From contig NZ_AP025509.1 in NCBI RefSeq assembly GCF_024347615.1, positions 1,612,001-1,676,000 of the forward strand: a stretch of 64,000 bases of DNA, read 5' to 3'. The translations under genes and the position numbers were made by a program. The notes beneath the pieces were generated by a model, which worked only from the letters and a program-made list of their open reading frames with translations, was not told where the DNA came from and did not search any database. This document shows, in pieces, positions 49,565 to 52,523 of the stretch. How positions within the stretch are numbered: the first letter of the stretch is position 1; each line of letters starts with the position of its first letter. The DNA is from Vibrio splendidus. GTDB taxonomy: Bacteria; Pseudomonadota; Gammaproteobacteria; Enterobacterales; Vibrionaceae.

Positions 49565-49741
49565 TTATGCAGCATTGAGATCAAACGTCAGTGTTTGTTC
49601 TGCGGCACATACTTCAACAGGCCAGCCGTAGGATTGATATTCCAGCGCAAGTTTGTCTGCTACTGCGCGAGATACCGTTGCAGTGATCCACATGCCTTTG
49701 CCCATTACTTGATATTTAAGCGTTCTCATTTCCATCATCAT
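49565..49741 (-). CDS. Small protein of unknown function
   Basis: About 58 residues. A strong AAGGAG precedes several start candidates (GTG 49747, ATGs 49741, 49738 and 49735). The N-terminus is Met-rich (MMMEMRTLKYQVMGKGMWITATVSRAVADKLALEYQSYGW) and the body is compact and soluble. No family recognised. Codon usage and the ribosome site support a real gene. It lies between nhaD and yjiH on the minus strand. Confidence 0.65.
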   Translation of the reverse strand: MMMEMRTLKYQVMGKGMWITATVSRAVADKLALEYQSYGWPVEVCAAEQTLTFDLNAA

Positions 49742-50270
49742 CACCACCGTTCTCCTTCGATATTGGCAGCGCGAAGTCTATAGCACCTCTAAGGGCTGAA
49801 ATTTCGAATTAAGCTCAAATTCTTTATAAAATGGCTCACGGTTTAGCCACGGTTCAAAACTCAACCTACAATAGGTGAACGATTGCATTTTAGAAGCGTA
49901 ACCATGATTTAAGCCGCTGTATTATAATCGAATTAAAATTGAACAAAAAAAGCATGTAAGAGATCACTTACATCATTATCAGAGATCAGACTAGGTAAAA
50001 ACCTGTCATTTGAAACCTTACTTGTGTGGTGATTGTGTGCGTTTTTGGTTGCGCTGTTGAAGCGAATTTTGTTTAGTTTTGTATGTGAAATATTCTAATT
50101 ATTTTAGCGTATGTCTCTGCTTTTAAATCTAAATCACAGTTTTATATGTTGCTGTGGTTCTTTTGTTCAAACCGATACGCTATTTGATTTTGGTCATTAA
50201 CCTATTGCTCATTAGTTTGCACTATCTATACGTGTTCTGTTCCACATAAACGAGATGTATAGAGGTCCTT
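49742..50270. other. 529-bp region between small gene and yjiH
   Basis: AT-rich. It holds the perfect dyad TGTAAGAGATCACTTACA (separate entry). No gene or structured RNA recognised; the yjiH promoter is presumably at 50100-50240. Confidence 0.5.
49955..49972. promoter_or_regulatory. Perfect VarA/GacA-type dyad
   Basis: TGTAAG-AGATCA-CTTACA is an exact match to the GacA/UvrY/VarA consensus TGTAAG-N6-CTTACA. It is about 300 bp upstream of yjiH and 214 bp upstream of the minus-strand small gene. A TyrR box (TGTAAA-N6-TTTACA) is the main alternative. Confidence 0.6.
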
Positions 50271-51008
50271 ATGACTAATCCAACTAAAACCGATCGTAAA
50301 GTCACGATCGGCAGCTATATCGCACTCGCATTCGCGATTGTGTTCTTTTCAGGCTTAATGCAGTCCAATGAATGGTATGGAGTGCTCGATTTTACAACGC
50401 TCAACGGTTCATTCGGTAAGGTCGCTTACGATGTCAGTGAAACGGCCGATGGTATCCAAGCGGCAACGACGTCACTGCGTGGTAAAGGCGGTAGTGGTGC
50501 TCGCGACGGTTTCATTTTTGCTTTGACACTTATTCCGACCGTGATGTTTGCACTGGGTATGATCAACGTACTTGAGCACTACGGTGCACTGGACGCGGCT
50601 CGTAAACTACTGACACCTCTGCTTCGCCCTCTAATGGGTATTCCGGGTAACTCAGGCTTGGCACTGATTGCTTCTTTGCAAAGTACCGATGCGGGTGCAG
50701 CGATGACGAGGCAGCTGAAAGATGAAGGGCATCTGACTAAGCGTGAAACCGATGTCTTCACCATGTTCCAGTTTACGGCGGGCGCGGCGATCGTTAACTT
50801 TTTCTCTTCAGGTGCGGTTCTGTTCACTCTAACGGCGATAGATGGTTCTTTGGCGGTAACATCGTCAATTGGTTTGGCTGTGGCTGTGATGTTCATCTTC
50901 AAGTTTGTCGGTGCGAACCTGTTCCGTATTTACCTCAACATTACTGAAGGCAAAGAAGACAAACCAAAATCAGACAAAGAACAAAAATTGGCAGAGGAAG
51001 TAGCATAA
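50271..51008 (+). CDS. yjiH: YjiH family membrane protein (nucleoside recognition domain)
   Basis: 245 residues, larger than E. coli YjiH (227). Gate/nucleoside-recognition fold, as in SpmA. FIFALTLIPTVMFALGMINVLEHYGALDAARKLLTPLLRPLMGIPGNSGLALIASLQSTDAGAAMT is the core motif. Several membrane segments and a charged C-terminal tail (EGKEDKPKSDKEQKLAEE). In E. coli yjiH-yjiG precede iadA (isoaspartyl dipeptidase). It is coupled to yjiG by TAATG. The transported substrate is unknown. Confidence 0.88.
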   Translation: MTNPTKTDRKVTIGSYIALAFAIVFFSGLMQSNEWYGVLDFTTLNGSFGKVAYDVSETADGIQAATTSLRGKGGSGARDGFIFALTLIPTVMFALGMINVLEHYGALDAARKLLTPLLRPLMGIPGNSGLALIASLQSTDAGAAMTRQLKDEGHLTKRETDVFTMFQFTAGAAIVNFFSSGAVLFTLTAIDGSLAVTSSIGLAVAVMFIFKFVGANLFRIYLNITEGKEDKPKSDKEQKLAEEVA

Positions 51009-51475
51009 TGAGCGAAGTTAAAGCAAAGAAACCAATGGTTACTGATATTTTCGTTGAAGGTGCTAAGAAAGGCTGGGTTATTGCGACTACCTCTACGGTA
51101 CCGAATGTTCTGATGGCGTTTGTGATCATCAAGGCATTGCAGATCACCGGTGCGCTGGATTTGATGGGCAGTGTCTTTGCTCCAATCATGGCGGTAATTG
51201 GTTTACCTGGCGAAGCGGCAGCAGTATTGATTGGCGCTTGGATGTCGATGGGTGGTGCTGTGGGTGTGGTTATCACGCTGTTTGACCAAGGCATTCTGAA
51301 CGGCAACCATATCGCTATCTTGGCGCCAGCTATCTACTTGATGGGCTCTCAGGTTCAATACATGGGTCGTATTATGGGACCAATTGGTACTGAAGGTCGT
51401 TATATCCCGGTGATGATCGCGATTTCGGTATTGAATGCCTTTGGTGCAATGTTCTTGATGAACATTATTTTGTAA
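51008..51475 (+). CDS. yjiG: YjiG family membrane protein (SpmB-like)
   Basis: 155 residues, as E. coli YjiG (153). TTSTVPNVLMAFVIIKALQITGALDLMG, then GLPGEAAAVLIGAWMSMGGAVGVV and PAIYLMGSQVQYMGR, closely follows the E. coli pattern. Second half of the two-gene YjiHG unit, with starts and stops sharing one base. Together they probably form one membrane complex. The stop is followed 10 bp later by a 17-bp tandem repeat. Confidence 0.92.
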   Translation: MSEVKAKKPMVTDIFVEGAKKGWVIATTSTVPNVLMAFVIIKALQITGALDLMGSVFAPIMAVIGLPGEAAAVLIGAWMSMGGAVGVVITLFDQGILNGNHIAILAPAIYLMGSQVQYMGRIMGPIGTEGRYIPVMIAISVLNAFGAMFLMNIIL

Positions 51476-51485
51476 CGTGACTATT

Positions 51486-51536
51486 AACGGTTAGCTGCTT
51501 TTAACGGTTAGCTGCTATCAACGGTTAGCTGCTAAC
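51486..51536. repeat. 17-bp tandem repeat x 3
   Basis: Three copies of AACGGTTAGCTGCT plus a variable trinucleotide (TTT, ATC, AAC), immediately after yjiG and before the shared terminator. Confidence 0.92.
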
Positions 51537-51552
51537 AGCTTTTAGACGTTAC

Positions 51553-51590
51553 AAAAAAGGAAACCCCCGTTTGGCTTTCACCAAACGGGG
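51553..51590 (-). terminator. Terminator of the CsrB-type RNA (bidirectional)
   Basis: A 10-bp stem (CCCCGTTTGG / CCAAACGGGG) with a 6-nt loop, followed on the minus strand by GTTTCC and T6. It also faces the convergent yjiHG transcript. Confidence 0.93.
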
Positions 51591-51865
51591 TCTATTCTTT
51601 TCGTAGCCATCCTGCTACTGCGCGTTACTTATCTTTCAATAGGTAACTGGTGCTCCCTGCATCGTTCCTTGACGTGGCTAAATCCTTTAACCTATCCAAT
51701 TCATCGCCTTCCTAGCGGTGTCCTTGCTAACTCATCATCCTGACAAGCGACTCTATCCTAGAGCAAAACTTCCTTGCTGATAACTCATCCTAAGCCATCA
51801 AATCTTCATCCTGAAGATACCTAATCCGTTAGGCTTTTTCCTGTTCCTGCCAACTCCCTGTCGAC
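51553..51865 (-). ncRNA. csrB: CsrB-family small RNA, sequesters CsrA
   Basis: No protein gene fits here. Read on the minus strand, the segment starts GTCGACAGGGAG, the same 5' end as E. coli CsrB, and contains 16 GGA motifs in 313 nt. Most are in CAGGATG, CAAGGA, TAGGAT or CAGGGAG form, and several sit in the loops of small hairpins (CTTCAGGATGAAG, CTCTAGGATAGAG, GTAGCAGGATGGCTAC). It ends in a strong GC stem with a T-run. CsrB RNAs titrate the translational regulator CsrA. Vibrio genomes usually carry two to four such RNAs, so the letter (B, C or D) is uncertain. The promoter and VarA-type box upstream complete the picture. Confidence 0.93.
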
Positions 51866-51871
51866 ATGTGT

Positions 51872-51900
51872 ATTAAACACTGCAGAGGCTTTACTCACAA
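51872..51900 (-). promoter_or_regulatory. Sigma-70 promoter of the CsrB-type RNA
   Basis: On the minus strand TTGTGA, 17 bp, TTTAAT, with the predicted +1 G of GTCGAC 7 bp downstream at 51865. Confidence 0.8.
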
Positions 51901-52025
51901 TCCACCTCAAGAAATAAATGTACTCACTAGCCGAAAGAAATATGCGTGGATTCATACAAAACAAGGGGTTGGGTTTGTATTTTAGGAATTTTCTGCGAAG
52001 CTTGATTGTGATCTCTTACGTTCGG

Positions 52026-52043
52026 TGTGAGAGATCTCTTACA
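52026..52043 (-). promoter_or_regulatory. VarA (GacA/UvrY)-type activation site
   Basis: On the minus strand TGTAAG-AGATCT-CTCACA, one mismatch from TGTAAG-N6-CTTACA, centred about 170 bp upstream of the predicted RNA start. This is close to the distance reported for UvrY at E. coli csrB. A second half-site (CGTAAGAGATC) lies 22 bp nearer the promoter. Confidence 0.8.
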
Positions 52044-52133
52044 AGTGCTCGGGCGTGATTATCATTTTATCTTGGCGGTTAATGTCGAAAAGATAGAAAA
52101 GAACACTGAGTTAAGACAAAACAATAGGGAAAT

Positions 52134-52523
52134 ATGATGGTTACAGCACTTTACGCAGCTCTGCTGACGGTCGTAATGATTTGGTTGGCGGTTGAAGTTA
52201 TTAAACAAAGACGAATCAATCTTGTTGCTCATGCCGATGGCGGTGTTGAGTCGTTACAGATAGCACGTTCGGCACAAAGTAACGCGATGGATTACATCCC
52301 AATCACGGTGATTTTGATGGGGTTGCTAGAGATGAATGGGGCTGGTGTGTGGCTTATTCATGTCATTGGTGTGGCGTTTATTCTGGGGCGAGTGATTCAC
52401 GCTAAAGGGATCTTAGCGAAAAACTTCAAAGGCAGAAAAGTGGGTATGGTGTTAACGCTTATCTGCATGATCTCTTTGATTGTCCTAAACTTAGCCTACC
52501 TACCTTTTGATAAAATGTTCTAG
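52134..52523 (+). CDS. MAPEG family membrane protein
   Basis: 129 residues, four membrane segments. NLVAHADGGVESLQIARSAQSNAMDYIPITVILMGLLEMNGAG is the MAPEG signature (conserved Arg/Asn and Glu). Bacterial MAPEG proteins are glutathione-transferase-like, but their substrates are mostly unknown. The start is one of two adjacent ATGs, with AGGGA upstream. Followed after 8 bp by a membrane protein gene, probably co-transcribed. Confidence 0.9.
   Translation: MMVTALYAALLTVVMIWLAVEVIKQRRINLVAHADGGVESLQIARSAQSNAMDYIPITVILMGLLEMNGAGVWLIHVIGVAFILGRVIHAKGILAKNFKGRKVGMVLTLICMISLIVLNLAYLPFDKMF

What the first reader, a model, noticed from the sequence alone, without database searches (positions are those of the whole stretch)
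51553..51865. CsrB-family regulatory RNA in an apparently empty 658-bp gap
Seen directly: on the minus strand, 313 nt with 16 GGA motifs (CAGGATG, CAAGGA, TAGGAT, CAGGGAG), several in hairpin loops; a GTCGACAGGGAG 5' end like that of E. coli CsrB; a -35/-10 pair (TTGTGA-17-TTTAAT) at the right place; and a strong terminator. CsrA-titrating RNAs of this design control virulence, motility and carbon storage in Vibrio. It would be missed by protein-based annotation.
Basis: partly seen in the sequence, partly recalled or inferred. Interest (0 to 1): 0.75.

Follow-up and report, generated by a model that had tools for sequence, protein, structure and literature searches.

The report
Fourth CsrB regulatory RNA, Splendidus-clade Vibrio
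The empty-looking gap holds a real gene for a CsrB-type RNA, a sponge that soaks up the global regulator CsrA; it is one of four copies in this marine Vibrio and belongs to a kind already studied in a close relative, and a neighbouring tiny gene carries the same kind of control switch.

Summary
The minus strand at 51865-51553 encodes a CsrB/RsmB-family RNA (RF00018, 67.5 bits, E 7e-16 over 64 kb). That is just under Rfam's cut-off of 71, so the default scan reports nothing. The genome holds four CsrB copies; the box pattern occurs without mismatch at four places, one before each. CsrA and VarA are present. csrB1-4 of Splendidus-clade V. tasmaniensis LGP32 are published (PMC6262261), so the kind is known. 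14 of 80 named loci have csrB here. Most novel by-product: a second such box at 49955-49972 precedes a conserved 56-aa orphan ORF. It is kept in 27 of 27 ortholog loci and missing in 9 of 9 csrB-positive genomes without the ORF. VarA may thus also switch on a protein gene directly. Nothing here is expression data.

The parts
51553..51865 (-). csrB gene (CsrB/RsmB-family sRNA, about 310 nt), csrB3/csrB4 type of the Splendidus clade
   Evidence: RF00018 match 51836-51555, 67.5 bits, E 7.2e-16; 16 GGA; 5' end as in E. coli csrB
51565..51590 (-). intrinsic terminator of csrB
   Evidence: 11-bp stem, 7 GC pairs, T-rich tail; stem largely kept in orthologs
51872..51900 (-). -35/-10 pair TTGTGA-17-TTTAAT
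   Evidence: read directly; TTG of the -35 kept in 15 of 15 rows and TTTAAT in 14 of 15 rows (not L047) of the ortholog alignment
52026..52043 (-). VarA/UvrY/GacA-type box TGTAAGAGATCTCTCACA, -178 to -161 from the csrB start
   Evidence: 0 mismatches to TGTRAGAGATCTCTYACA, 0.09 matches expected at up to 3 mismatches; box starts at -174 to -178 in the four own csrB genes, from 5' ends that I assumed
49565..49735 (-). 56-aa orphan ORF, candidate direct VarA target (side lead)
   Evidence: codon-position changes 31/28/132 against 10 orthologs; no Pfam or NCBIfam family at E up to 0.1
49955..49972 (-). second VarA-type box, 1 mismatch, 220 bp upstream of the orphan ORF (a palindrome, so it could also face the yjiH-like operon at 50271)
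49775..49785 (-). conserved extended -10-like TGCTATAGACT upstream of the orphan ORF
   Evidence: alignment, position; no start site measured
50271..51475 (+). two-gene unit of Gate/nucleoside-recognition membrane proteins (called yjiH/yjiG type here from recall), convergent with csrB
   Evidence: Pfam Gate for both, NCBIfam PRK10519.1 for the second
52134..52523 (+). MAPEG-family protein gene, divergent neighbour of csrB

Best explanation
A functional csrB gene. Phosphorylated VarA binds the palindrome about 170 bp upstream and activates the sigma-70 promoter. The roughly 310-nt RNA displays many GGA loops, binds several CsrA dimers and so relieves CsrA-controlled mRNAs. It is one of four sibling copies, on the smaller contig (2.0 Mb, presumably chromosome 2), and corresponds to csrB3 or csrB4 of V. 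tasmaniensis. Shown here: sequence, predicted structure and conservation. Inferred from relatives: transcription, VarA activation, CsrA binding and redundancy with the three siblings.
For: RF00018 hit. Four CsrB in the genome, two over and two under the Rfam cut-off. The pattern TGTRMGAGATCTCTYACA has zero-mismatch sites at four places in 5.88 Mb, one before each csrB (spacing). One CsrA gene; VarA at 76% identity to E. coli UvrY (which flags one TAA in the matched stretch) with an open frame of 214 aa ended by a stop. csrB at this locus in 14 of 80 named loci. Full-length hits of at least 85% identity in 34 of 196 Vibrio genomes, the own one included; of the 30 of these fetched as loci, MAPEG and yjiG were found beside it in 30 of 30 (yjiG partial in 3). 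Published: four csrB in V. tasmaniensis LGP32, CsrB4 complements a V. cholerae csrBCD mutant, csrB2-4 levels fall without VarS/VarA (PMC6262261, sections 6-8 read).
Against: 67.5 is below Rfam's gathering score 71. Covariation support is thin because orthologs are similar: 4 of 89 pairs. No transcript data. One named ortholog has an internal deletion (L041) and one locus is reduced to a terminator remnant (L046), so the copy is dispensable in some strains. In LGP32 csrB1 has the box yet is VarA-independent, so the box alone does not prove regulation.
Confidence: 0.96

Rival explanations
1. A decaying csrB duplicate: it looks like csrB but contributes little because three siblings suffice.
For: Internal deletion in L041 and G122; terminator remnant only in V. 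lentus L046; siblings present.
Against: 12 of 14 named orthologs have no large deletion and the VarA box at 0-1 mismatch; of the other two, L041 has the deletion (box 1 mismatch) and L048 two box mismatches. 34 of 196 genomes keep the gene full length.
Confidence: 0.05
2. A chance GGA-rich intergenic stretch with a terminator, not a CsrB.
For: Sub-threshold Rfam score; 11 of 2000 shuffles reach the GGA count.
Against: E 7.2e-16 over the whole model; first 13 nt identical with E. coli csrB and a VarA box at the family spacing; conservation across species.
Confidence: 0.005
3. For the second box (49955-49972): it controls the yjiH/yjiG-like operon on the plus strand, or it is a site of another regulator with a similar palindrome.
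For: It ends 298 bp before the yjiH-like start, and a palindrome has no direction. In E. coli, 19 in-silico box sites near other genes were listed, and for the 5 with known regulators the other factor's motif overlapped the box (PMC4682653 section 32).
Against: The box is absent from 67 of the 79 named loci that reach this position, all chosen for having yjiG (L042 does not reach; the 67 include csrB-positive L041, L043, L044). 6 genomes keep full yjiH and yjiG but have neither ORF nor box (L249, L250, L252-L255).
Confidence: 0.35

Closest known systems
csrB3/csrB4 of Vibrio tasmaniensis LGP32 (PMC6262261; outline, sections 6, 7, 8 and passages read)
   Same: Splendidus clade, four csrB copies, VarA box upstream, extra copies without synteny to other vibrios; another V. 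tasmaniensis strain, 1F-187, has csrB at this locus (L044).
   Different: Which of the two numbers this locus bears could not be read (supplementary tables not available). The locus also holds csrB in V. fortis (L053) and two unnamed Vibrio sp. (L050, L051); V. fortis is not mentioned in that paper. My tree does not settle the csrB3-to-csrB4 duplication.
CsrB, CsrC, CsrD of Vibrio cholerae (PMC6550530, passages read)
   Same: VarA-box promoters with the box starting about 177 bp upstream, many GGA in loops.
   Different: 23-28 GGA there against 16 here. In the other vibrios looked at, the related copy sits beside a rimK-like gene (L181, L196; gene name recalled), not here.
CsrB of Escherichia coli K-12
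   Same: First 13 nt identical, 18-bp box upstream starting at -191, same Rfam family.
   Different: 369 nt with 22 GGA against about 313 nt with 16.

Membership tests
CsrB/RsmB RNA (RF00018) | Covariance-model match at or above the gathering score | tested here: not met
   67.5 against 71 bits; of 20 copies at this locus scored, 12 reach it and 8 (this one included) do not, so the cut-off splits one orthologous group and I do not take it as exclusion
CsrB/RsmB RNA (RF00018) | Significant full-length model match | tested here: met
   model 1-356 of 356, E 7.2e-16 in the window
CsrB/RsmB RNA (RF00018) | Many GGA motifs, mostly unpaired or in loops | tested here: met
   16 GGA, 10 with mean unpaired probability at least 0.85, one at 0.04
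CsrB/RsmB RNA (RF00018) | Rho-independent terminator | tested here: met
   51590-51565
CsrB/RsmB RNA (RF00018) | Promoter with far-upstream UvrY/VarA/GacA palindrome | tested here: met
CsrB/RsmB RNA (RF00018) | CsrA and the response regulator in the same genome | tested here: met
   CsrA; VarA. The sensor VarS was not searched
CsrB/RsmB RNA (RF00018) | Is transcribed; binds and titrates CsrA | not testable with these tools
   needs RNA and protein experiments
Direct VarA target (the 56-aa ORF) | Conserved VarA-type box at near-constant distance from the gene | tested here: met
   27 of 27 ortholog loci, 0-2 mismatches, box ends 216-232 bp before the ATG; none at up to 3 mismatches in 3 of 3 diverged paralogue loci
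Direct VarA target (the 56-aa ORF) | VarA binds and activates | not testable with these tools
   needs footprint or reporter

The most novel reading that the evidence does not exclude
The csrB locus lies in a small VarA-controlled cluster. Besides csrB, VarA directly activates a clade-specific 56-aa protein gene through a box with csrB-like far-upstream geometry (-202 to -185 from a predicted extended -10 promoter). The VarA/GacA-type regulator would then have a conserved direct protein-coding target in addition to Csr RNAs, and the orphan protein would be a new output of the pathway.
Probability: 0.45. Interest if true: 0.5.

Novelty: new member of a known kind. Interest (0 to 1): 0.3.

Why it matters
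As a CsrB it is ordinary, but it shows that Rfam's cut-off splits an orthologous group: 8 of 20 copies scored at this locus fall below it, so counts of csrB copies taken from gathering-threshold annotation can be too low. The neighbouring box plus orphan ORF is a testable exception to the picture that the GacA/UvrY regulator acts almost only through Csr RNAs: in E. coli and Salmonella csrB/C were by far the strongest UvrY/SirA targets and in P. aeruginosa only RsmY and RsmZ were found (PMC4682653, passages). The same paper also lists weaker E. coli sites with negligible or modest effect, which counsels caution.

Tried and rejected
A chance GGA cluster was rejected. The tree of 36 csrB sequences is poorly resolved (7 of 33 inner branches well supported). 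The AU test weakly disfavours the window group plus the tex-side copies as one clade (p 0.041), with the group chosen after similarity was seen, so I draw no conclusion on which copy arose from which. The six other weak Rfam hits in 51200-52200 (best RNase_MRP, 19 bits, E 0.003) lie far below their cut-offs, five of them over or beside the terminator hairpin, and were taken as chance. The 1-mismatch box at C1:434120 lies inside a coding frame (glmS-like, name recalled) and was set aside. The 2-mismatch site at C1:3512540 was fetched (L213) but not examined, nor were L214, L215 and L216. Row choice: the tree used 12 of the 14 named orthologs (L041, L042 left out); alignment A1 used 13 of the 14 (L041 left out) plus the window, L190 and L191; Rfam rescoring used 20 of the 34 full-length genomes. 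Absence of csrB at the other named loci rests on BLASTN with the four own copies at E up to 1e-5; RF00018 was not run on them.

Full report
Observation. The gap 51476-52133 carries no listed ORF of 80 aa or more. On its minus strand, 51865-51553 holds 16 GGA motifs. Shuffles reach 16 in 11 of 2000 (dinucleotide) and 4 of 2000 (mononucleotide) cases; this is the densest GGA cluster of the window (up to 17 per 313 nt; next separate cluster 11). The strand folds at z -4.56 and ends in an 11-bp terminator hairpin. The promoter TTGTGA-17-TTTAAT is as described; the generic promoter scan does not list it, as it wants A at position 2 of the -10.

Identity. At Rfam's gathering threshold nothing is reported. 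At E-value threshold RF00018 CsrB is the only hit with E up to 1 in the 64 kb: 67.5 bits, E 7.2e-16, full model length; the gathering score is 71. Of 20 copies at this locus that I scored, 12 exceed 71 and 8, the window's among them, do not. The first 13 nt are identical to annotated E. coli K-12 csrB.

Control region. A palindrome TGTAAGAGATCTCTCACA lies at -178 to -161. In the whole 5.88-Mb genome the pattern TGTRMGAGATCTCTYACA has zero-mismatch sites at four places, one before each of the four csrB genes; the backwards control pattern has one site per strand at up to 2 mismatches. The boxes start at -174 to -178, with the 5' ends of the siblings assumed by me. E. coli csrB has the same box starting at -191. 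The published VarA site is TGTG[AC]GAGATCTCT[TC]ACA (PMC6262261), and the V. cholerae csrB fusion began at -197, 20 nt before its VarA box (PMC6550530). The genome has one CsrA gene and a VarA at 76% identity to UvrY (one TAA flagged in the matched stretch), with a 214-aa open frame up to its stop. VarS was not searched.

Relatives. Neighbour protein 51008-51475 finds V. splendidus, V. tasmaniensis, V. lentus, V. chagasii and V. fortis at 95-99% (best 80 of 185 loci kept). csrB is found at this locus in 14 of these 80 (L038-L045, L047-L051, L053): V. splendidus, V. tasmaniensis, V. chagasii, V. fortis and strains without a species name. One of the 14 (L041) has an internal deletion. Among the 66 without a BLASTN hit, L046 (V. 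lentus) keeps only a terminator remnant of about 30 bp beside other sequence up to the contig end, and L055 ends 44 bp past the gene and cannot be judged. In 196 Vibrio genomes, 34 (own included) have a full-length match of at least 85% identity and G122 has the deleted form; in the 30 fetched as loci, MAPEG and yjiG flank it in 30 of 30, yjiG partial in 3. RF00018 itself is found in 194 of 196; the two without it are genomes of only 1.0 and 1.1 Mb.

Paralogues. The own genome has four CsrB. The nearest paralogue (79% identity) lies between genes that I recognise as tex and greB (names recalled) on the larger contig; among 30 greB loci examined, csrB sits there in 4, and also in L184, L187 and L189. 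In other vibrios looked at, the related copy sits near a rimK-like gene (L181, L196); the own rimK-like gene is at G000:C2:795, where one search has no CsrB hit. This fits the published scheme of duplication and relocation in the Splendidus clade (PMC6262261, section 6), but the tree is too weak to order the events.

Structure. In 16 orthologs, 4 of 89 predicted pairs show two-sided kept changes, covariation term -2.31 kcal/mol: compatible, not strong. 10 of 16 GGA are mostly unpaired in the single-sequence ensemble.

Mechanism. Best reading: a VarA-activated CsrA sponge, one of four. Sequence, conservation and partner genes are shown; transcription, CsrA binding and physiological role are inferred from relatives. 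For V. tasmaniensis, csrB2-4 levels fall without VarS/VarA while csrB1 does not, and CsrB4 complements a V. cholerae csrBCD mutant (PMC6262261, sections 7 and 8).

Side lead. The window has a second box at 49955-49972 (1 mismatch). Between it and nhaD lies a 56-aa ORF (49735-49565, minus) whose changes against 10 orthologs fall at codon positions 1, 2 and 3 in numbers 31, 28 and 132 (114 synonymous, 55 nonsynonymous codon differences; the comparisons share ancestry and are not independent). It has no Pfam or NCBIfam family, and the protein search returned 10 homologous entries. In 27 of 27 ortholog loci (L217-L243, own included) the box ends 216-232 bp upstream of the ORF with 0-2 mismatches; in 3 of 3 diverged paralogue loci none is found. 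The box columns are better conserved (0.93) than the 40 columns on either side (0.72, 0.74) and rank 5th of 312 windows upstream of the ATG, the better ones lying 152-155 nt further on. Of the 34 genomes with full-length csrB, 25 have the ORF; the other 9, all fetched, have no box at up to 3 mismatches, though 6 of them keep full yjiH and yjiG. Because ORF and box are adjacent, one deletion can remove both, so these losses are weaker evidence than the counts suggest. V. profundi (L076/L243) has ORF and box at this locus but no csrB there. A predicted extended -10 would place the box at -202 to -185. Against it: E. coli has 19 in-silico box sites near other genes, untested, and weaker UvrY sites had negligible or modest effect (PMC4682653). 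Searches for VarA with ChIP-seq, Vibrio and csrB, and for VarA with splendidus and csrB, listed 5 and 2 papers; from titles and abstract starts none describes this ORF.

Noticed in passing
window 49955-49972 and 49565-49735: Second VarA-type box in front of a conserved 56-aa orphan ORF; in the loci examined box and ORF occur together (27 of 27 orthologs) and are missing together (9 of 9 csrB-positive genomes without the ORF).
   Followed up: yes
L046 6500-6985 (V. lentus): csrB reduced to a terminator remnant of about 30 bp next to other, possibly mobile, sequence at the contig end; no other window-type copy was found in that genome.
   Followed up: partly
L041 6498-6735 and G122:C67: csrB ortholog with an internal deletion in the 5' half; the nearby orphan ORF is also truncated there.
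   Followed up: partly
window 51481-51534: About three copies of a 17-bp tandem repeat just after the csrB terminator; the copy number seems to differ between orthologs.
   Followed up: no
G000:C1:126968-127447 and L216: The greB-like gene next to the tex-side csrB is more similar to that of several other vibrios (88-93%) than to that of close relatives such as G006 (78%), and G005 has further greB fragments with stops nearby; looks like allele replacement.
   Followed up: no
L186, L199: csrB pairs about 2.0 kb and 4.8 kb apart in two other Vibrio genomes (G191, G082).
   Followed up: no
G000:C2:366872 and G000:C2:1520455: Two diverged paralogues (61 and 68 aa, 49 and 43% identity) of the orphan ORF in the own genome, without a VarA-type box nearby at 2 or fewer mismatches.
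   Followed up: partly
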